Shown in pieces: positions 1,456 to 59,954 of a stretch of 60,000 bases of DNA (its first letter is position 1; each line of letters begins with the position of its first letter). The notes beneath the pieces are model-generated. The model was not told where the DNA came from. It ran no database searches and saw nothing but the letters and a program-made list of their open reading frames with translations. The DNA comes from Bolinopsis microptera (Eukaryota > Ctenophora > Tentaculata > Lobata > Bolinopsidae), in assembly GCF_026151205.1 (NCBI RefSeq), contig NC_087072.1, forward strand, positions 21,296,103 to 21,356,102, given 5' to 3'. A program made the translations under genes and the position numbers.

Positions 1456-2318
1456 TACCTTACTCGGGAGTATTATAACCGGGATAAAGTGGTGGGTTTT
1501 GGAAGATTCCGCCATATTTTTCCCGGTCAAAAATTTTACCAGTCATAAAAAAACCCGCCGACTCAGATAATGGGGTTCCAAGGGGGTGGTGATCATCATA
1601 TTTTACCTGAAGTCTCATATATGCTAGAGAAGACTTTTGAAGCAGTGGATGGAGGGCTGTAACTTTATTGGCGGTTGCTACCATAATTTCGGTATAAAAA
1701 CCACAATTTGGTTATAGAGATCAGATTTCAGGGTGGACCACATCCCGCTAGAAGTGAGTAAACTGTGCCACTATTTCATGGTCCACGGTGGATTGATTAC
1801 TGGAGCAGTTGAAAATGCAAAGCCAAGACGTTCCCCAATACCAAGCGGTGGGCAGGAAATTAAGCTCCGGCTGACCTTCAGAGCAGTAGCCCCATTAGCG
1901 GACAAAATGAAAGTCTTGTTAAGACAACAATACAACTTCGAATTTGACGGTCAGCAGCAGGGGGATATCAATAATGATAATGGAGGTGACATTAGTGATA
2001 ATGAGAATGAGAATACGCTTTAATGAAGATTTGACTTATTATTGCTTAGATTTATTTTCCTTTAAATAGACGTGTCTTTTTTTCTATTTCTGAGTAATAT
2101 CAATAACTGTAAATTGAAATAACTTCTTTAACAAGTAACAAAAACAGAAATTTCGGTTGAAAATTTGTTGACCTCTGAAAAAAAACTTGAAAGGTCGGCC
2201 ACCGGTAAATACATGACCGGGATAATTTGGCGGGTTTTGGGAAATTCCGCCATATTTTTCCCGGTCATTAATTTTCCCAGTCATAAATTAACCCGCTATA
2301 ATATTCCCGAGTAAGGTA
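1456..2318. mobile_element. Non-autonomous element with TIRs and subterminal hairpins
   Basis: The ends form a 22-bp inverted repeat with one mismatch (TACCTTACTCGGG.. at 1456-1477 and its reverse complement at 2297-2318). Just inside each end, about 80 bp recur in direct orientation (about 1478-1560 and 2217-2300). Each copy is itself a weak hairpin built from ATGACCGGGA..TCCCGGTCAT. The outermost TA may be a target duplication, which would suit a Tc1/mariner-like mechanism, but the palindromic end makes that ambiguous. No transposase is encoded. Confidence 0.55.
1733..2023 (+). CDS. Unidentified ORF or exon fragment inside the TIR element
   Basis: The frame follows a good splice-acceptor-like sequence (TTTCAG, then GGTGGACC) and has no ATG near its start, so it looks more like an exon or exon relic than a full gene. 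The middle reads KLCHYFMVHGGLITGAVEN and then a GGQEIKLRLTF segment. The tail is acidic and Asn/Asp-rich and ends at a TAA. I do not recognise the family. The HGG..GG.EI..L.F layout resembles ORFs often associated with invertebrate mobile elements, but that is an impression, not a match. Confidence 0.3.
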   Translation: MDHIPLEVSKLCHYFMVHGGLITGAVENAKPRRSPIPSGGQEIKLRLTFRAVAPLADKMKVLLRQQYNFEFDGQQQGDINNDNGGDISDNENENTL

Positions 2319-2446
2319 TTTAAAGAGTGACAACCATACTACACATTGAATTAGGATTCCTTTAAATATCAAATTGATTTATTGTAAACTTGTTTACTCT
2401 GTAATAAATGGCAAAAAATTGAATTTTTGTTTAACTGAATTTTTGT

Positions 2447-3010
2447 TTAACTGATCACCGAACAGTACCCTGAGACAGTACTTCTGAGCAGTAAATATTG
2501 AGCTAATACGTTGCTTCGCGGCCCCAACCCATACAGATATACAGTAAGAAAGATGTGATTCAAACAGGGTATAATATAATTGTTGATGTAGAGATTCTGG
2601 AAGAGAGTAGGGAAGTCTACATAGGTGGATGTGGAATGATTTAGAGTTCGCTTAAGGGCTTTACTGTGATCTTCCCATGATAGGTTCTCGTCAATTATAA
2701 CACCTAGAAATTTTGCAGATGAAAAGTTGGAAAGTTTGGTGGGCTTGAAGTGTATGTAGCAGCACTTGGACATGTTTATATGTAACTAATTTGCTCTCAT
2801 ATAAGACTGTAATGATGACAAAAGCTTATTTCCTTGTTCATATACCTCACGTTTTATTTTGCCAACAACAAATATATACCTGTATCATCAGCAAAGTTAA
2901 CAAATGATCCTAGTTTAGAATTGTTTGTGATGTCGTTCATATAAAGAAGAAATAGGAGAGGTCCAAGTATTGAACCTTGAGCTGCGGAACACCAAATTGA
3001 ATAGATAGGG
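2447..3010 (-). pseudogene. LINE reverse transcriptase relic (jockey/CR1-like)
   Basis: On the minus strand, about 3000-2870 encodes QGSILGPLLFLLYMNDI followed by FADDTGIY. After a frame change and an in-frame TAG, about 2773-2450 encodes KFLGVIIDENLSWEDH, which is typical of the region after the RT catalytic motif. It is a decayed internal piece of a non-LTR retrotransposon, different from the one at the left edge. Confidence 0.75.
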
Positions 3011-3189
3011 TATCTGATAGGGTAGGTCAATGAATATTCTTAAAACATGATTCTTAAGTTTATGAGATTTTGTAATTAAAACTACTGAGTAATTAACTGC
3101 ATTAGATGTAGAGTGGGATTTCTTAAATCCAAACTGTGTCTTCGATATATGACTCCCTGAGAGCTAACAATTCCATAATTATTAGCTAT

Positions 3190-3902: not shown

Positions 3903-4034
3903 CCGACTGCCAAGGTTTGACGCCCAGGCAGTCGAGACCTCTTATTGAGACCCTTTATAATAATATTACCGATTGCCAAGGTTTGATGCCTAGGCAGTCG
4001 AGACCTCTTATTGAGACCCGATATAATAATATAT
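3903..4034 (+). repeat. Two 66-bp direct repeats just before the LINE ORF
   Basis: Copies start at 3903 and 3969 (CCGACTGCCAAGG / CCGATTGCCAAGG) and end in CTCTTATTGAGACCC. Each holds a potential stem, ACTGCC..GGCAGT. They run directly into the RT reading frame, so they could be 5' monomers of that LINE or its target sequence. Confidence 0.6.
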
Positions 4035-6137
4035 ATACTCACCACAATATATACTCACCACAATCACAGACATTACCCTGAACCACCAGATCTGGACATC
4101 CTAAACAAGCCCATATCTGATTCTGAACTTACTTCCGCAATCAAAAAGCTCAAAAAGGGTAAAAGTTGCTCAAATGACTTGATCTCAAACGAGATGCTTC
4201 AGAGCCTAACTCCGCTTTGTTTCCAAGTCATCCTCAAAACATTCAACCACTCTCTGGTCTCAGGCTACTATCCATGGCATACCAGTATTATCACTCCTAT
4301 CTATAAATATGGCAACCCCTTCAGCCCAGACAATTACAGAGCAATAGCAGTTGGCAGTTGTATGGGTAAGCTGTTCTCTAGCATCTTACTTGAACGTCTG
4401 TTACACTTCAAAAAGCTCTACTGTCCTGACCCAAAAGAACAGCTTGGATTTTCAAAAGGTGCCCAAACTAACGATCACGTTTTCACCCTCAAGACAGTAA
4501 TTGACAAATACACAAAAGCTAAAAAGGCTCGTATTTATGCATGCTTTGTTGATCTAAGAAAGGCCTTTGACACTGTATGTAGGGACCTCCTTCTGCACAA
4601 AATTACATGCCTTGGAATAACCGGTAACTTCTTCAACTGCTTAAGTGATATGTACAAAAACTCTATTGCCCATATAAAAATTTCCAAACTCTTGTCGCCT
4701 AAAATTGATATTGGCAAAGGAACGGAGCAAGGACACCCCCTATCGCCAGACCTCTTTAAAATCTACATTAATGACTTTTCATCTCTCCTGAAATCTGTTG
4801 GTGACTATCCAGTTCTTGCTGACGTTCTGATATCACATCTGCTGTGGGCTGACGATCTTGTCCTTCTTGCTCTAAGTCCCGAGGCCTTGCAAGTCAATAT
4901 CAACATTCTATTTGATTTCTGTAACTCCATGGGCCTTGAAGTAAATATTAAGAAAACTAAGATTGTAATATTCAGCCCTCCCAAACGAAAGCAGTCCTAT
5001 GAAACATTCACATTGGGAGGTCAGCCCATCCAGCACACCGATAAATACTGCTATCTTGGCATAATATTCCACAGAAATGGATCGTTTACAGCAGCAAATA
5101 CTGAGCTGAGGGCCAAGGCTCTCCGTGCTCTCTATGGCCTCAAAGGCAAAATAGTTAAGGATGCCCTCTCACACCGTGCCCTTAATATTCTATTTGACTC
5201 CTTAATAAAACCAATCCTGCTTTATGGCTGTCAAGTCTTATGCCCCCACTCAAAAACCATGAGATACCTTTCAAAAATAGATGACAAAGCCAACCCCCAG
5301 CATACCTTGAAGTACATTGCACAAGACCACTATGAAAAATTCCACCTAAAGTTTATCAAGTGGTCTTTGTCTGTACATTCAAAAGCATCAAATATAGGTT
5401 GCTGGGGCGAAAGCGGGCGCCACCCTCTATTCTTTGAAGCCTGCAAACTTGCAATAGATTACTATAGTCGCCTTGAAAACACTGAAAACGAACTACTCTG
5501 TGCTGCATTTCACGAACAAATCATGTTGGGACTTCCTTGGTATACCAACATCTCAAAGCTTCTCACCAAATACAACTTCACCCCCTCATCTTCCTCAAAA
5601 TCTAAGCTCTCCACCCAAATCAGTCATAACATGAGGGAAGAATTCGTGAATACCTGGAGAGCTGCCAAGGCCTCCTCACCAAAACTAGAATTCTATAACC
5701 TAATTAAACATGATTTCGAACCAGAGGCATACCTACGAATTATCAAAATACCGGATGTTCGAAAAAGTCTGACAAGGTTTCGTATCAGCTGCCACAACCT
5801 CTACATCGAAAGGGGCAGATACGAAACCCCCCTTGTACCAAGAGAAGAACGTTGGTGCACCTACTGCTTTTTCAGCAAAGGGCTCAAGCCTATTGAGGAC
5901 GAAAGTCACGTATTGATTGACTGTTTGCTCTACTCCTCAGTTAGGGAAAAATTCAATTTCCATCCCCTAAACATTACTGACCTAGTCGGTTTGCTCTCCA
6001 ACAAAACTCTAGATCCTACCACACTCACTGCCACAGCAAGAGCAATCCATTCAATTCTCTCTGTGAACGAAAATTATACAGCCTACTATAATAGCCCAGA
6101 TTTCCACTCAAATACTGGCAAGTGCATAATGCTATAG
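4011..6137 (+). CDS. LINE reverse transcriptase ORF, 5' truncated
   Basis: A frame of about 700 codons encodes a non-LTR retrotransposon RT. Motifs in order: CSNDLISNEML, DNYRAIAVGS, QLGFSKGAQTNDH, FVDLRKAFDTV, GTEQGHPLSPDLF, WADDLVLLA in the catalytic position, CYLGIIF, then a long C-terminal region with a Cys/His cluster (CTYC, then H and C within ESHVLIDC). No apurinic-type endonuclease precedes it and the frame has no ATG before the RT domain, so the 5' half is missing. The intact frame implies recent insertion. The octamer repeat tail downstream favours a CR1/L2-related clade, by inference. Confidence 0.85.
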   Translation: MRPDIIIYILTTIYTHHNHRHYPEPPDLDILNKPISDSELTSAIKKLKKGKSCSNDLISNEMLQSLTPLCFQVILKTFNHSLVSGYYPWHTSIITPIYKYGNPFSPDNYRAIAVGSCMGKLFSSILLERLLHFKKLYCPDPKEQLGFSKGAQTNDHVFTLKTVIDKYTKAKKARIYACFVDLRKAFDTVCRDLLLHKITCLGITGNFFNCLSDMYKNSIAHIKISKLLSPKIDIGKGTEQGHPLSPDLFKIYINDFSSLLKSVGDYPVLADVLISHLLWADDLVLLALSPEALQVNINILFDFCNSMGLEVNIKKTKIVIFSPPKRKQSYETFTLGGQPIQHTDKYCYLGIIFHRNGSFTAANTELRAKALRALYGLKGKIVKDALSHRALNILFDSLIKPILLYGCQVLCPHSKTMRYLSKIDDKANPQHTLKYIAQDHYEKFHLKFIKWSLSVHSKASNIGCWGESGRHPLFFEACKLAIDYYSRLENTENELLCAAFHEQIMLGLPWYTNISKLLTKYNFTPSSSSKSKLSTQISHNMREEFVNTWRAAKASSPKLEFYNLIKHDFEPEAYLRIIKIPDVRKSLTRFRISCHNLYIERGRYETPLVPREERWCTYCFFSKGLKPIEDESHVLIDCLLYSSVREKFNFHPLNITDLVGLLSNKTLDPTTLTATARAIHSILSVNENYTAYYNSPDFHSNTGKCIML

Positions 6138-25220: not shown

Positions 25221-41043
<15,823 letters not shown>

Positions 41044-52505: not shown

Positions 52506-52822
52506 TGTTAGACTTAGCAGAATACTAATCATTATATATTCATAGTATGAGAACCGGTTGAAGTTTGTAGAAAGAAGATTAAGTTTGTAGAAAGAAGATT
52601 TATGTTATTGTAGAGTATCAACCGGTACGTATTCCTTTAAACTATATATTTACAATGATCTATATACTATTATATATTTACAATGGATAATTGGAACTTG
52701 ATATAACTATTTGAGTTTATATTATTGGTGTAATAAATCCTATTTATTACAGGTTCTGTTTCTATTTCAAACCCAGCGAGTTTCTCTTGTAAACAACTCA
52801 AGTCCTGTGAACACATATTAAC
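52506..52822 (+). repeat. 5' LTR
   Basis: It starts TGTTAGACTTAGCAG and ends ACACATATTAAC. It contains an internal direct repeat AAGTTTGTAGAAAGAAGAT and an inverted ACCGGTT..AACCGGT pair. AATAAA occurs at about 52733, a plausible polyadenylation signal. Confidence 0.92.
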
Positions 52823-52825
52823 AGT

Positions 52826-52841
52826 GGTAGCAGTTCAGTTA
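52826..52841 (+). promoter_or_regulatory. Primer-binding site (initiator Met tRNA type)
   Basis: TGGTAGCAG follows the 5' LTR by a few bases and is complementary to the CTGCTACCA 3' end of initiator tRNA-Met. Confidence 0.75.
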
Positions 52842-53093
52842 ACTTGTGAGAGACGACAGATCCACCGAAGAAGAACCAGAGGAAAGGAGAGAAAAGGTAA
52901 TTGGAAGAAATTGTTATAGACTGTTCAGTTAATTTAAAGAAGAAAGAGACTAACTAGAAAGTATTGAACTGATTCAAGTGTTGAAAGTAATTAAAACTCA
53001 GTGTTAGTTAGTTATAGTCAGTGTACATTTGTTTGTGTCAGTGTACAGTCTAATAGTTTTGTGTTTGTAGTAATTGTCACATTCATTCACATT

Positions 53094-56000
53094 ATGAGCG
53101 AGAAGATACCGAATTTAGAGGATGACAGCGACTACAGCCGTTGGAAGAAAGCAGTCAAAGTGTGGCAGTTGGGAACAACAGCAAAGAAAACTCAACAAGC
53201 CAGCCGTCTGATTGGATTCATGAATGGAAGAGCGTATGAAGCAGCACTACAAATAGCACCAGCAGAGTTAGGAGTTGAAACCGGAGTTGATAAGCTGATA
53301 ACAGAGCTGGATTCTCTGTTTCTAAAAGACGCCACACACGATCTGTTCATGGCAATTGAAGATTTCGAGCACTATAAGAGACCAGAAGGTGTAGCAATGG
53401 ACCTGTATGTGCGAGACTTTGAACAGAAAAGAAAGAAGATAGACCAACTGAGGGAAAAAGAAGTGTACGAGGATGGGGTGTTAGCGTATAAACTCCTCAA
53501 TCAAGCAAACCTTAACCCGGACCAGAAACGGCTTGTAAAAGCAACAATAACGAAGCTAGACTATAAAATGATGGTCCAATCGTTGAAGCAGACATTTGGA
53601 GATGAAGTACCATTTGAAAGTCCTACCCGGATAGAAACTGTTATTAAGGAAGAACAAGGCATCATGTTTACAGATCAAAGAAGTAGACAAAGCAGCAGTG
53701 CCAGTGGAGAAACTGCAGAAAGTGAAGATGAGGGTGTTCTTTACAATACCGGAAGGTTCAGGGGGAAAGGAAAGTTCAGAAAGTATGGTAATGGCAATGA
53801 TAACCGAACAAAGCAAACCAACCAAAACTACCAGGGTTGTTATATTTGCAAAAATCCAAACCATCGTGTAGCAAACTGCCCTCATAATACTTACAAGACT
53901 GAAGGTCAAAGAAATACTTATAAGACAGAAGGTCAAAGACAAAGGTATACATACCTGGCTGATATGACGAGAGAAGTAGTTCTACCTGAAAGAGACGAAC
54001 AGTATACATACTTCATAGGAGAAACTGTAAACAAAGGTTTACTAGACACAGGTGCGTCTGCAACGGTATGTGGAAAAAAGTGGCTAGAAGTCTACACAGA
54101 GTCACTCACAGGGGAAGAAGCGAGGAAGTTAAAGACAAAGAACAGTAAAGCAACATTTCGCTTTGGAGATGGTGAAAGCGTGGTGGCTAGAAAGCTTGTA
54201 ACTTTACCTGTGAAAATGTTTGGTAAGAACATAGTGATTAGAACACATGTTGTCGACACAGACATTCCGTTACTGCTGTCAAAACAAACCATGAATGAAC
54301 ACAGGTTTGTCATCGATGTAGGAAATAAGAAAGTGTATGCTCATGGCGGAGAAGAACCAATCCTTGACACAGCTTCAGGACACATGGGGATGTCAATCGG
54401 GAGAGGAGAGGATTCTAGAGTTGTACCGCCACATGATCAGGAAATGACAGTGAATAAAATGAGAGCTGGAGGAAAAGACCCTTATGATAAAGATGAGGAA
54501 GACACTGACAAGGACACTAAAGAAGAACTGACAAAGACTCGTAGCACGCGTGCTGGCGGGATTGCAGTTGATAAAGAACCCCGCACAAAGGCAAAGACCC
54601 GTGGTACTGACGGGAGCGGGAGGGTTGAAGAATTGAATCAACCAAGTCATGACAAAGAAGAACTGACAAAGACTCGTAGCACGTGTGCTGGCGGGATTGC
54701 AGTTGATAAAGAACCCCGCACAAAGGCAAAGACCCGTGGTACTGACGGGAGCGGGAGGGTTGAAGAATTGAATCAACCAAGTGATGACAAAGAAGAGCTG
54801 ACAAAGACTCGTAGCATGCGTGCTGGCGGGATTGCAGTTGATAAAGAACCCCGCACAAAGGCAAAGAACCGTGGTACAGACGGGAGCGGGAGGATTGTAG
54901 GACTCCAAGTGGGAGTGGAACAAAGGAATGTCACACGTGGGATCCGTAGACAAAGCGGAAGTCGTCTTTATGGAGAGATAATACTGAGCGACCGTGAGGA
55001 ATCTGAAGGAACAGAAGAACCAGTTGTGAGCAACTGTGAGGAGTCTGAAGGTACAGAAGAACCAGTGGAAAGCGACTGTGAGGAATCGGGAGATACAGAG
55101 GATCCTGTTGTGCAGGTGTTGAATGAAACTGAAGACAACACTATTAGTCGCGTGGTTGAAAAGAACTGGCCCAGTGTAGAGCCAGTGAAGATTGAAGGGA
55201 ACTGGAAAAGTAAAGAGCCAGTGAAGATTGAAGAGGACTGGACCAATGTAGAGCCGGTGAAGAATGGAGCTCTCAATCTCAAGAAGGATAATATAGTGAG
55301 ATTTAGAGGCCAAGAAACCGAAGACTGGACAAAAGGACTCGTGACAAGTCGTGCAGGAAAATCGACTGGTCAGTACAAGAATGAGTATAACTTGGAGAGA
55401 GAAGACGAAGAATCGGATGAAATGACTCGTGAGGTGTATTTGAAACCACCTGCCGATATCAGGAAGCAGGGTGTGATGTGGAGGTTAAAGAAACCGGAAC
55501 AGAAGAAACCCCCAGAGTCAAAGCTGACAGAAGAAGAAAAGAAAGTGTACCAGAAACAACTCGGGAGAATGTTGTGGCTTAGTGGCCAAACCCGTCCAGA
55601 TTTGAACAAAGTTACTAAGAAGATCGCAGGAGGACCAAAATCACTGTGTTTCAAAGGCTTGGATCTGCAGAGAGACAACATTTCGATCACATTCTACACG
55701 GATGCTAGTGTTGGAAACACGTTCACAGAGAACGGAAGACAGACACAGAGTGGGAGAGGTTACCTTGTTTTTCTAACTAACGGAAAAACGGCTAACTTAA
55801 TCGACTGGAGTTCTAGGAAGATAAAACGTGTCGTGCACTCGGCGTTTGGAGCCGAAACTCTAGCTTGCATAGATGCCATGGGAGCTGCAATCTATGTCCG
55901 ACAAATACTGTCAGAGATACTGTACGGAGATCCGAAGAGTGAAGTCATACCAATCAAAGGTTTCGCTGATTCTAAACAGTTACATGATCACGTTCATACA

Positions 56001-56234
56001 TCGAAGCAGTGTGAAGAAAAGAGACTGAGACTCGACCTAGCAGAACTTCAACAAGCACTCTCCAACAAGACACTGAAGTCATTAACATGGATACCTACTG
56101 ACATCATGTTGGCAGATTGTTTAACAAAGAAAGATGCAAACTGCGAGCAGTTGTGCACTGTGATCGAGAGAGGAGAGTTTCTGGAGATTAACTTTGTTTG
56201 TTTGAATAATTTATTATTTTTTAGCGTTTTTTAA
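53094..56234 (+). CDS. Copia Gag-protease-RNase H fusion ORF
   Basis: From the first ATG the frame encodes 1046 aa without interruption. It has a Gag region (DSDYSRWKKAVKVWQLG), a CCHC zinc knuckle (CYICKNPNHRVANC), a protease with the active site LLDTGASATVCG, then three 45-residue repeats and two sets of short acidic repeats. A linker follows (VRFRGQETEDWTKG, SRAGKSTGQYKNEYN) that normally lies after integrase, then an RT scrap (EVYLKPPADIRKQG, VMWRLKK). The catalytic RT core is skipped, and the protein resumes at LGRMLWLSGQTRPDLNK and a complete copia RNase H with TDAS, AET, FADSKQL and PTDIMLADCLTKK. Integrase and RT are thus lost in two in-frame deletions. It is non-autonomous, but the Gag, protease and RNase H parts look intact. 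Confidence 0.88.
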   Translation: MSEKIPNLEDDSDYSRWKKAVKVWQLGTTAKKTQQASRLIGFMNGRAYEAALQIAPAELGVETGVDKLITELDSLFLKDATHDLFMAIEDFEHYKRPEGVAMDLYVRDFEQKRKKIDQLREKEVYEDGVLAYKLLNQANLNPDQKRLVKATITKLDYKMMVQSLKQTFGDEVPFESPTRIETVIKEEQGIMFTDQRSRQSSSASGETAESEDEGVLYNTGRFRGKGKFRKYGNGNDNRTKQTNQNYQGCYICKNPNHRVANCPHNTYKTEGQRNTYKTEGQRQRYTYLADMTREVVLPERDEQYTYFIGETVNKGLLDTGASATVCGKKWLEVYTESLTGEEARKLKTKNSKATFRFGDGESVVARKLVTLPVKMFGKNIVIRTHVVDTDIPLLLSKQTMNEHRFVIDVGNKKVYAHGGEEPILDTASGHMGMSIGRGEDSRVVPPHDQEMTVNKMRAGGKDPYDKDEEDTDKDTKEELTKTRSTRAGGIAVDKEPRTKAKTRGTDGSGRVEELNQPSHDKEELTKTRSTCAGGIAVDKEPRTKAKTRGTDGSGRVEELNQPSDDKEELTKTRSMRAGGIAVDKEPRTKAKNRGTDGSGRIVGLQVGVEQRNVTRGIRRQSGSRLYGEIILSDREESEGTEEPVVSNCEESEGTEEPVESDCEESGDTEDPVVQVLNETEDNTISRVVEKNWPSVEPVKIEGNWKSKEPVKIEEDWTNVEPVKNGALNLKKDNIVRFRGQETEDWTKGLVTSRAGKSTGQYKNEYNLEREDEESDEMTREVYLKPPADIRKQGVMWRLKKPEQKKPPESKLTEEEKKVYQKQLGRMLWLSGQTRPDLNKVTKKIAGGPKSLCFKGLDLQRDNISITFYTDASVGNTFTENGRQTQSGRGYLVFLTNGKTANLIDWSSRKIKRVVHSAFGAETLACIDAMGAAIYVRQILSEILYGDPKSEVIPIKGFADSKQLHDHVHTSKQCEEKRLRLDLAELQQALSNKTLKSLTWIPTDIMLADCLTKKDANCEQLCTVIERGEFLEINFVCLNNLLFFSVF
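54519..54923 (+). repeat. 135-bp coding repeat, three units
   Basis: Units start at 54519, 54654 and 54789 and encode KEELTKTRS.RAGGIAVDKE followed by PRTKAKTRGTDGSGR. Nucleotide differences are few. They occupy the place where integrase would be. Confidence 0.92.
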
Positions 56235-56479
56235 CTTGTTAGTTACTTTTTTCCCTGACTACACGTTTTGAATAACGTATATTTTGGTGATTACACGTAT
56301 TGAATATGATTTTATTACGTGATTACACGTTTTGAGTAGCTTACTTACCTTATATTACTCATATTACGAGTATAGTTTACCTTACCGAATATAATTTCGA
56401 TTAGAATAATGTTGCAAAATCACCATTTCTACCCTAACATTTCACAATGACATTCATTCGAATTAGTATGTTAGTACAT

Positions 56480-59202
56480 TAGTACAGACAGATCCGTCTG
56501 AAAAAATCGATCTGCCGACACACAAAGCTTACAAAGGATTTTTGACGTTTTTGAGTCCTAATAGATGTCCTTTATGGCTGACCAACTTTTCCAAACTTTT
56601 CCACGTGTCTTAAGGCCACTTTTTGCCACTTTACCACTTTTTACCACCTTTCTTGTTTGTCGAATATCTTTAGTTGTGAACATCGTAAAAGGTTGCGGAT
56701 CAATCGAGTGTGTTCATATTACCATGAAGAAAAACTTTTGTTCGAACAATTTTTACGTCAGATTATCAGTTAATTGGATAATTATCAATTAGCTAATTAG
56801 CAAAATTCTAAAAAAATTTTATTGGCTCAAAATGATCGGAATAGCTTAAAACACGGAGAAAAGTAGTTTTTAGAAAAACTTTGAAAATTTTTCACTTACA
56901 TTTTTTTTCGAGACTTGGAAAAATTTCTAAAATTTAAAATATTTTTTTCCGCCAAAAGTGATCAAATCGCATGAAACGCGGAGAAAAATGCTTTTCAAAA
57001 AAATACTTAGTGAATTTTTCCTTTCAAGAATACTTAAATCACCAATATTAATGTAGTTGGAGTTCAGTAAATCGCGGCAGATTTTAATAATCAGGAATTA
57101 CTCAGTGGAAAGGTCTGAAACTGAAAAACGTTAACCATACGATATAAGAGTTTCATAACTAATTAAAATACAGCCTTATCAATTTTCACAGAAACTGCAC
57201 CAATGGCACAGTCAAGATCGAAAGACGAAACGATAGCCTGCTGTACTATCATTTTATTGATTTCAATGATGAATCAGTGGGGTTAAGATAATCACATTTG
57301 TAATAAATAAAACCTCTCTGCACCGTCAATTGTGCTAATCTAAACCGGCCTACCTGGATTACCAGACCTCTTCTTTTCCTCAACAATCAAGCCAAGTTGT
57401 TCATATCGCATTTGGTGGGCGATGTAAGTACATTATATCGAGCTGTATTCAATCACAATACGACACAATGCAATACGTGTATATTATATGATGGCCCTTA
57501 ATCGGTATGGAGAGGTTTTACAGTTTATCACGAAAACGTCTACTTAGCCTCATGACTCTTTGACAGCTCAAAGAAGGCAAGAAAAGACCAGAAAGCTTAA
57601 AATGTCAACTCGCTCTTTTCAATGCTCTTCGATCTGTCCCACATTAATCCCGAGCTGATCATCATGGGCCCCGAATATCCTGCGGGAAGAACCTGTATTT
57701 TTACTTCACAACGTCCAGATTTCAAATCAACATCCTCAATAACATTAACAATCCTTCCAGATCAGGATCTGTCTCTATTAGCAATTTCCAAAATATCCTG
57801 ACTCTCGTGGAACATTTTACTGAATGAATTATTACCGGTTCTTTACTACCCCTTTCCCGACGCTTGTATCTAAATCTTATCCTTGCCCGTATGTTACCCT
57901 TGTTGATTCTACTTTTAGCCGACCCTGACATATGGGGGTGATTTTATACCGCATAGCAAATGAAGCGGTATGCAGTACAATACAAAACAAGTCACAGTAG
58001 ATGTTGGAAGGTGTATTAACACTTGCTTCCTGGATCTGGCTGTTCCTTAGTTTCCCTGGTCTGTTCTTGCCTTCTTCGGACTGTAAATGAGCCATGAGGC
58101 CAAGTATACGTTTTCGTGATAAACTGTAAAACGTCTCTATACCGGGTTTCTCACGGTATTAACCGTTTAAGCGTTTCATAAACCTCATTAAGAGCCATAT
58201 AATATACACGTATTGTGTCGTATTGTGATTGAATACAGCTCGATATAATGTACTTAAATCGCCCACCAAATGCGATATGAACAACTTGGCTTGATTGTTG
58301 AGGAAAAGAAGAGGTCTGATAATCCAGGTAGGCCGGTTTAGATTAGCACAATTGACGGTGCAGAGAGGTTTTATTTATTACAAATGTGATTATCTTAACC
58401 CCACTGATTCATCATTGAAATCGATAAAATGATAGTACAGCAGGCTATCGTTTCGTCTTTCGATCTTGCCTGTGCCATTGGTGCAGTTTCTGTGAAAATT
58501 GATAAGGCTGTATTGTAATTAGTTATGAAACTCTTATATATCGTATGGTTAACGTTTTTCAGTTTCAGACCTTTCCACTGAGTAATTCCTGATTACTAAA
58601 ATCTGCCGCGATTTACTGAACTCCAACTACAAATATTGGTGATTTAAGTATTCTTGAAACGAAAAAATTCACTAAGTTTTTTTTGAAAAGCATTTTTCTC
58701 CGCGTTTCATGCGATTTGATCTCTTTTGGCGGAAAAAAATATTTTAAATTTTCGAAATTTTTTTAAGTCTCGAAAAAAAATGTAAGTGAAAAATTTTCAA
58801 AGTTTTTCTAAAAATTACTTTTCCCCGTGTTTTAAGCTATTCCGATCATTTTGAGCCAATAAAATTTTTTTAGAATTTTGCTAATTAGCTAATTGATAAT
58901 TATCCAATTAACTGATAATCTGACGTAAAAATTGTTAGAACAAAAGTTTTTCTTCATAGTAATATAAACACACTCGATTGATCCGCAACCTTTTACGATG
59001 TTCACAACTAAAGATATTCGACAAACAAGAAAGGTGGTAAAAAGTGGTAAAGTGGCAAAAAGTGGCCTTAAGACACGTGGAAAAGTTTGGAAAAGTTGGT
59101 CAGCCATAAAGGACATCTATTAGGACTCAAAAACGTCAAAAATCCTTTGTAAGCTTTGTGTGTCGGCAGATCGATTTTTTCAGACGGATCTGTCTGTACT
59201 AC
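56480..59202. mobile_element. 2.7-kb foldback element in the copia 3' region
   Basis: Arms of about 1.07 kb (56480-57552 and 58094-59202) are inverted copies with small differences. The outer ends read TAGTACAGACAGATCCGTCT. The spacer of about 540 bp (57553-58093) holds no recognised gene. The same 75-codon ORF occurs in both arms (56565-56792 plus, 58889-59116 minus), but it has no known domain and may be incidental. Possible target duplications are short (CAT or TA) and ambiguous. It lies wholly between the ORF stop and the polypurine tract. Confidence 0.78.
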
Positions 59203-59627
59203 ATGTCAGTACAAGTAGTTTCGCAGTTCATGGTACTAGTGTGGTTTATGTGACAGTAGTAATGTTCGTATAGAGTGTTACACTGAGACTGTGACATGAG
59301 TTGTGACAGATTATATTTAGTTACGATATGAAAGAGGTGAAAAGATTGGTTAATGGTTATTTACTGTGAATTTACCAGTAGATATTGTTAATCACACGTT
59401 TGCTACGTGTATGGCAGTCAAAATTTTCTGTCTGAGAGATTGGGACATTTTCTTTGTTTGAAGTAACTAACGACTAGCAATTTTCTAATATTGGATTGTG
59501 AAAAGTTGAAATATTTTTACCGCGCACGCGCGTTCTTTTAAGCAATTTGTAGAATTTAGGATGATTACGTGTCAAGTGTTTTTAAGTGTTTTTAAAGAGC
59601 TTCGAGCTATTTTCAAAAGTTTTTAAA

Positions 59628-59637
59628 TAGGGGGGAA
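59628..59637 (+). promoter_or_regulatory. Polypurine tract
   Basis: AGGGGGGAA directly precedes the 3' LTR, the expected primer for plus-strand DNA synthesis. Confidence 0.8.
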
Positions 59638-59954
59638 TGTTAGACTTAGCAGAATACTAATCATTATATATTCATAGTATGAGAACCGGTTGAAGTTTGT
59701 AGAAAGAAGATTAAGTTTGTAGAAAGAAGATTTATGTTATTGTAGAGTATCAACCGGTACGTATTCCTTTAAACTATATATTTACAATGATCTATATACT
59801 ATTATATATTTACAATGGATAATTGGAACTTGATATAACTATTTGAGTTTATATTATTGGTGTAATAAATCCTATTTATTACAGGTTCTGTTTCTATTTC
59901 AAACCCAGCGAGTTTCTCTTGTAAACAACTCAAGTCCTGTGAACACATATTAAC
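59638..59954 (+). repeat. 3' LTR
   Basis: Same length and, by eye, same sequence as the 5' LTR. Immediately followed by CTAGCACAAAGG. Confidence 0.92.

What the first reader, a model, noticed from the sequence alone, without database searches (positions are those of the whole stretch)
53094..56234. Compact copia element with Gag, protease and RNase H but no integrase or RT core
Two in-frame deletions remove integrase and the RT catalytic block while keeping one continuous 1046-aa frame, in an element with apparently identical LTRs. Retaining an open Gag-PR-RNase H frame in a recently moved copy suggests a successful parasitic derivative, not a random defective copy.
Basis: partly seen in the sequence, partly recalled or inferred. 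Interest (0 to 1): 0.72.

Follow-up and report, generated by a model that had tools for sequence, protein, structure and literature searches.

The report
Pruned copia retrotransposon lineage still spreading
A jumping element that has lost its copying and inserting enzymes but keeps its capsid, protease and RNase H genes sits at several places in this genome with freshly made ends, so it kept spreading after the loss, most likely by borrowing enzymes from a complete relative.

Summary
The element spans 52506-59954, with LTRs identical over 317 bases, and includes a nested 2.7-kb DNA element. Compared with a coding-complete relative in the same genome (L015), its 1046-aa frame carries four deletions, not two: 1035, 429, 351 and 66 bp, all multiples of three. 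They remove the integrase core and the RT catalytic block. Ungapped genome searches found joints 1, 2 and 3 at the same five places, without mismatch; joint 4 is in four of these copies. The four siblings have private 5-bp target duplications and LTR pairs with 0-1 substitutions; the window copy has no duplication. The lineage therefore moved after the deletions. A sixth, partial copy shares joints 2-4. One sibling (L013) is a chimera: RNase H, 3' UTR and U3/R are L015-type, while Gag and the U5 end are deleted-type, in both LTRs. That is the expected trace of template switching between co-packaged RNAs and supports mobilisation in trans. Best reading: a Gag-PR-retaining, trans-mobilised copia derivative, like mouse IAP 1-delta-1 or cattle D-type ERVK in logic. 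It is a new variant of a known kind. Transcripts and proteins are untested.

The parts
52506..52823 (+). 5' LTR (TGTTA...TAACA)
   Evidence: identical to 59638-59954 over 317 bases; LTR alignment of the family
52825..52833 (+). primer binding site-like TGGTAGCAG just inside the 5' LTR (match to initiator Met tRNA 3' end recalled, not tested)
   Evidence: sequence; the same stretch follows the LTR in six of the seven other paired-LTR copies, in L014 only its first bases
53094..56234 (+). single ORF, 1046 aa: Gag - protease - repeat region - short RT-region remnants - RNase H
53094..53990 (+). Gag region with CCHC zinc knuckle at 53835-53885
   Evidence: Pfam zf-CCHC, E 0.006, below the curated cut-off; motif visible in the translation
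53991..54446 (+). protease region (LLDTGASA)
   Evidence: only weak Pfam hits below cut-off: Asp_protease_2 E 0.12, RVP E 0.16, and an unrelated model at E 0.016; DTGA motif visible in the translation (motif meaning recalled)
54449..54450 (+). joint 1: 1035 bp (integrase core) missing relative to L015
   Evidence: the L015 piece 2077-3129 around it matches Pfam rve, E 8e-11
54519..54923 (+). three in-frame 135-bp tandem repeats
   Evidence: unit counts in family copies
55412..55413 (+). joint 2: 429 bp (RT) missing relative to L015
55497..55498 (+). joint 3: 351 bp (RT catalytic block with VDD) missing relative to L015
   Evidence: the L015 piece 4012-4872 matches RVT_2, E 1e-28
55605..55606 (+). 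joint 4: 66 bp missing relative to L015; absent from L013
   Evidence: L009 and L012 show it with one mismatch beside the joint
55623..56174 (+). RNase H domain
   Evidence: 66% and 36% identity to the domain C-terminal of RT in two other copia families of this genome, acidic positions D, E, D kept; no Pfam hit
56480..59199 (.). nested DNA element with ~1-kb terminal inverted repeats, inserted in the 3' UTR; TSD TACAT (56475-56479 and 59200-59204)
   Evidence: empty site in the 7 other family copies in which this place was found; arms aligned
59630..59637 (+). polypurine tract GGGGGGAA
   Evidence: sequence
59638..59954 (+). 3' LTR, last base missing, no TSD

Best explanation
It is one copy of a non-autonomous lineage of a low-copy Ty1/copia family. 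The lineage's polyprotein was pruned in frame to Gag, protease, a repeat-rich linker and RNase H. Its RNA is made from its own LTR and packaged into particles. Reverse transcriptase and integrase come in trans from a coding-complete family member of the L015 type, and the product is integrated through LTR ends that the two types share. Shown by sequence: the joints, their sharing, the TSDs, the near-zero LTR divergence, the existence of a coding-complete relative, and a chimera with L015-type sequence. Inferred: packaging in mixed particles, trans-supply of RT and integrase, and that the element's own Gag-PR is made and useful (this last step is the weakest).
For: Joints 1-3 are nucleotide-identical in 5 copies; joint 4 is in 4 of these 5, in two of them with one mismatch beside it. 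All four siblings have private 5-bp TSDs and LTR pairs with 0, 0, 0 and 1 substitutions. L015 is open (1645 aa from the ATG, from the coordinates), has rve and RVT_2 in the pieces that the window lacks, identical LTRs and a TSD. L013 joins D-type Gag..joint 3 to an L015-type 3' part (2 substitutions over 1387 bp) and has L015-type U3/R with a D-type U5 end in both LTRs. Its distances switch accordingly: in Gag-PR 0.005 to the window and 0.029 to L015, in RNase H-UTR 0.005 and 0.001. In Gag+PR the D copies vary at 11 synonymous and 6 non-synonymous sites, against about 21% synonymous expected (p 1.3e-4; 0.0098 after dropping four sites of a likely recombined patch in L009). In another copia family of the same genome 18 of 20 near-complete Gag hits have RT nearby, against 2 of 8 here (Fisher p 0.0018).
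Against: No RNA or protein evidence. Only 2 of 5 D copies keep a complete frame: L011 has a 2-bp Gag deletion, L012 has frameshifts and an insertion, and L009 is interrupted by two insertions. RNase H variation is neutral-like, and the contrast with Gag-PR is not significant (Fisher p 0.12). If neutral synonymous sites were 28%, the reduced test gives only p 0.044; other sites where a D copy matches L015 were not dropped, and recombination breaks the independence of sites. The copy number is small. The window copy itself lacks a TSD. Joint 4 missing in L013 may be repair by recombination, so the order of deletions is not established.
Confidence: 0.82

Rival explanations
1. Single post-insertion decay: the window copy was full length and lost integrase and RT where it sits.
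For: Deletion is a common fate of copies; L010, L014 and L018 show other deletions or rearrangements in this family.
Against: The same joints occur at five places, four of them with private TSDs and LTR pairs with 0-1 substitutions.
Confidence: 0.02
2. The deletions are spliced introns: a spliced RNA was retrotransposed.
For: All four joints keep frame.
Against: No joint has GT..AG in any equivalent register; they show 1, 2, 1 and 4 bp of microhomology instead.
Confidence: 0.03
3. Passive passenger (not exclusive of trans-mobilisation): cis signals (LTR, primer site, leader, polypurine tract) alone allow mobilisation, and the open frame is recent and irrelevant.
For: RNase H varies as if neutral; 3 of 5 copies have broken frames; L014, with Gag inverted, also integrated with a TSD.
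Against: Four deletions all in frame (about 1/81); excess of synonymous variation in Gag-PR.
Confidence: 0.3
4. Mobilisation in trans by one of the other intact copia families rather than by L015-type elements.
For: 122 RVT_2 matches, many in open frames of about 1400-1560 codons.
Against: Recombination traces are with the L015 type; the LTR ends TGTTA/TAACA are shared with L015.
Confidence: 0.1

Closest known systems
Mouse IAP 1-delta-1 elements (PMC7411935, passages read)
   Same: A deletion in gag-pol leaves one fused Gag-Pol protein; needs full-length copies in trans; [quoted passage not shown] one coding-complete candidate master copy.
   Different: An endogenous retrovirus family, not copia; here the RT core and integrase are removed by three to four separate deletions.
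TR-GAG elements of plants (PMC8704663, passages read)
   Same: LTR elements with a Gag frame and no pol enzymes; one was shown there to transpose, with a highly similar, potentially autonomous relative.
   Different: Here protease and RNase H are kept in the same frame with RT-region remnants; the host is an unnamed 265-Mb genome.
Cattle ERVK[2-1-LTR] D-type elements (PMC10924933, passages read)
   Same: Defective subclade dominates insertions and recombines with the competent subclade; proposed as parasite of the parasite.
   Different: Those D-type elements lack functional genes; these keep Gag-PR-RNase H.
ONSEN family recombination in Arabidopsis (PMC5668417, passages read)
   Same: Chimeric LTRs consistent with the first template switch plus coding-region junctions, as in L013.
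   Different: Observed experimentally in new insertions; here inferred from one genomic copy.
Tos17 of rice (PMC3977881, abstract read)
   Same: A copia element that moves while lacking part of its genes.
   Different: Tos17 lacks gag, the part that is kept here.

Membership tests
Ty1/Copia superfamily | Domain order PR-INT-RT-RH in the coding-complete relative | tested here: met
   L015: PR piece, then rve, then RVT_2, then RNase H by alignment position
Ty1/Copia superfamily | RVT_2-type RT in the window copy itself | tested here: not met
   no RVT_2 match; deleted at joints 2-3
Ty1/Copia superfamily | 5-bp target-site duplication and TG..CA LTRs | tested here: met
   5-bp TSD in 7 of 8 paired-LTR copies, not in the window copy; LTR TGTT..AACA, with a TA start in L013
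Non-autonomous LTR derivative mobilised in trans | Shared deletion joints at independent insertion sites | tested here: met
Non-autonomous LTR derivative mobilised in trans | Movement demonstrated to need a helper | not testable with these tools
   inferred from loss of RT and integrase only
TR-GAG | LTRs and a single frame coding Gag alone | tested here: not met
   frame also holds a protease-like region and RNase H
TRIM / LARD (definitions recalled) | No coding capacity | tested here: not met
   1046-aa frame
GalEa clade of animal copia | RT/INT phylogenetic placement with GalEa | not tested
   no reference sequences held

The most novel reading that the evidence does not exclude
The lineage is not just a parasite but the family's Gag-PR supplier. 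A one-frame copia element needs Gag in excess of Pol (recalled), and the pruned frame, apparently under purifying selection in Gag-PR and outnumbering the coding-complete copy, would act as the structural half of a two-part retrotransposon whose parts recombine in shared particles.
Probability: 0.13. Interest if true: 0.72.

Novelty: new variant of a known kind. Interest (0 to 1): 0.46.

Why it matters
It is a compact natural case in which a coding-complete relative, the derivative, its deletion joints and a derivative-relative chimera can all be read from one assembly. That makes questions about trans-mobilisation of copia elements (which genes a derivative keeps, and whether it exploits or supports its helper) directly testable with RNA and particle data.

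Tried and rejected
Whole-ORF Pfam and PDB-sequence searches gave only weak, uninformative hits; pieces were then searched apart. A splicing origin was rejected. A stepwise order 'three deletions, then a fourth' was considered from L013 and withdrawn, because L013's 3' part, including the joint 4 region, is L015-type and may have overwritten the joint. A sixth copy (C7, L071) runs from about window 55315 to the 3' LTR, with no more of the element in the 5.4 kb fetched upstream, and shares joints 2-4; the ungapped joint searches miss it because of its indels. At first it looked old. Its 8 transitions against 47 transversions and 63 mostly one-base indel events look like sequence error in the assembly, so I draw no age from it. 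An AlphaFold model of the RNase H piece was unusable (mean pLDDT 32.9); no fold search was run. A scan of viral contigs with the protease piece found no relative. Literature searches: of which I saw the listings (20 of 137, 4 of 4, 10 of 10, 20 of 313, 10 of 10, 12 of 15, 12 of 63 and 6 of 6 papers). In these titles and abstract starts I saw none on a copia derivative with this Gag-PR-RNase H make-up. Rows dropped before counts: of 31 LTR matches, solo, partial and diverged LTRs (for example C3:17.48 Mb, C2:1.44 Mb, C11:0.92 Mb) were not counted as copies; of 11 Gag matches, 3 are fragments (two belong to copies already counted, one lies at C3:17.48 Mb). In the control family, 20 of 33 Gag rows (those covering at least 990 of 1200 bases) and 24 of 36 RT rows (those at 98% identity or more) were used.

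Full report
What is there. The window holds an LTR retrotransposon at 52506-59954. Its LTRs are identical over 317 bases. A primer site-like TGGTAGCAG follows the 5' LTR and a GGGGGGAA polypurine tract precedes the 3' LTR. One ORF of 1046 codons runs from 53094 to the stop at 56232-56234. Its 3' UTR is split by a nested 2.72-kb element with long inverted repeats (56480-59199). The seven other family copies in which this place was found (L009, L011, L012, L013, L015, L018, L020) are empty there, and the insertion is flanked by TACAT on both sides. The window copy has no target-site duplication and its 3' LTR lacks the last base.

The genome. The window lies in a 264.65-Mb, 232-contig genome without a name, rich in copia elements (122 RVT_2 matches, many in long open frames). 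The LTR has 31 matches. The Gag-PR region has 11 matches, which are 8 copies plus fragments. The missing integrase piece is found at high identity in L015, in part in L010, and as a 52-base scrap in L018; other matches are 67-74% identical and belong to other families. The RT piece is found in L015, L020 and part of L010.

The deletions. Compared with L015, the window lacks 1035, 429, 351 and 66 bp, all divisible by three, with 1, 2, 1 and 4 bases of microhomology and no GT..AG register. The 1035-bp piece, with a few flanking codons, matches the integrase core (rve). The L015 stretch 4012-4872, which holds the 429-bp piece and nearly all of the 351-bp piece, matches RVT_2, and the 351-bp piece holds the VDD motif (motif meaning recalled). 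What remains is Gag with a zinc knuckle, a protease-like region with DTGA, a linker with three 135-bp repeats, two short stretches of the RT region (28 and 36 residues), and RNase H. RNase H was recognised by alignment to the domain C-terminal of RT in other copia families of this genome, 66% and 36% identity. Pfam gave only weak or no hits for Gag, PR and RNase H.

Shared joints. Joints 1, 2 and 3, searched genome-wide with up to three mismatches and no gaps, occur at the same five places without any mismatch, and the reversed-pattern control has none. Joint 4, checked in fetched copies only, is in four of these five, in L009 and L012 with one mismatch beside it. The four siblings L009, L011, L012 and L013 lie on C13, C2, C11 and C9 with TSDs CGGAC, ACACG, CTAAG and AACAT, and LTR pairs differing by 0, 0, 1 and 0 substitutions. 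The deletions therefore preceded at least four independent integrations, all recent by LTR identity. A sixth, partial copy on C7 shows joints 2-4, but its stretch carries an error-like pattern of indels and transversions, so it is counted apart and not dated.

Frames and selection. The window and L013 (1105 aa from the ATG, from the coordinates) are fully open; L009, L011 and L012 are interrupted by insertions or small indels. Among the five copies, Gag plus PR varies at 11 synonymous and 6 non-synonymous sites, RNase H at 3 and 7. With 21% synonymous sites, 11 of 17 has p 1.3e-4. Dropping four sites where L009 matches L015/L010 leaves 7 of 13, p 0.0098; with an assumed 28%, p is 0.0018 and 0.044. 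Other sites at which L013 matches L015 were kept. The difference between domains is not significant (Fisher p 0.12). I read this as suggestive of constraint on Gag-PR, not proof.

Recombination with the complete type. The D copies differ from L015 by about 3% substitutions in Gag-PR, plus indels and greater divergence in the linker, but by only 0.1-0.6% for four of the five (1.6% for L012) in RNase H and the adjacent 3' UTR. L013 goes further. After position 4969 of L015 it shows 2 substitutions and one deleted base in 1387 bp. Both its LTRs carry the L015-specific U3/R haplotype with a 10-bp gap, while their U5 end is the D-type tail that L015 lacks. Such a split, copied into both LTRs of an insertion with its own TSD, is what template switching during reverse transcription of two co-packaged RNAs predicts. 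[quoted passage not shown] It is the best sequence evidence here that D and L015 RNAs met in one particle. It also means that joint 4 may have been overwritten in L013.

Is the family unusual? In the control copia family (L070), 18 of 20 near-complete Gag hits have an RT hit downstream on the same strand within 6 kb, against 2 of 8 in this family (Fisher p 0.0018; with the rearranged L014 left out, 2 of 7, p 0.0047). One control family is a small yardstick.

Mechanism and place among known systems. The simplest reading is a trans-mobilised derivative that kept Gag-PR. IAP 1-delta-1 (PMC7411935, passages), TR-GAG (PMC8704663, passages) and cattle D-type ERVK (PMC10924933, passages) work by similar logic. 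The difference is the make-up: three to four in-frame prunings that leave Gag-PR-RNase H in a copia frame. Whether the element exploits its helper, competes with it or supplies it with Gag is open.

Limits. No expression data; one assembly; few copies; genome searches score only the best candidates, so counts of repeats are lower bounds (stated); clade assignment was not tested.

Noticed in passing
56480-59199: Nested element without an ORF of 100 aa or more, with ~1-kb terminal inverted repeats and a 5-bp TSD TACAT shown by empty sites; a high-copy family (44 matches listed, only 40 of 1473 first-look candidates scored). No family assigned.
   Followed up: partly
L014 (C8:10588200-10591350): A 2.8-kb family member with identical LTRs and a TSD whose Gag segment is inverted between the LTRs, apparently a reverse-transcription rearrangement that still integrated.
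   Followed up: partly
L013 (C9:640600-645800): Both LTRs begin TA instead of TG, yet the copy has a clean 5-bp TSD.
   Followed up: no
54519-54923 and sibling copies: The 135-bp in-frame tandem repeat varies from 2 to 6 units among family members that hold it (window 3, L009 6, L011 5, L013 5, L012 3, L015 3, L010 2).
   Followed up: partly
G000 C6:11236050-11237249: In the control copia family, one near-identical Gag copy without an RT hit nearby, possibly a separate Gag-only derivative.
   Followed up: no
38599-38656: Rfam tRNA match on the minus strand (36.2 bits) not called by ARAGORN.
   Followed up: no
L071 (C7:18544800-18552800): Stretch with an error-like excess of one-base indels and transversions relative to family members, suggesting a poorly polished part of the assembly.
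   Followed up: partly
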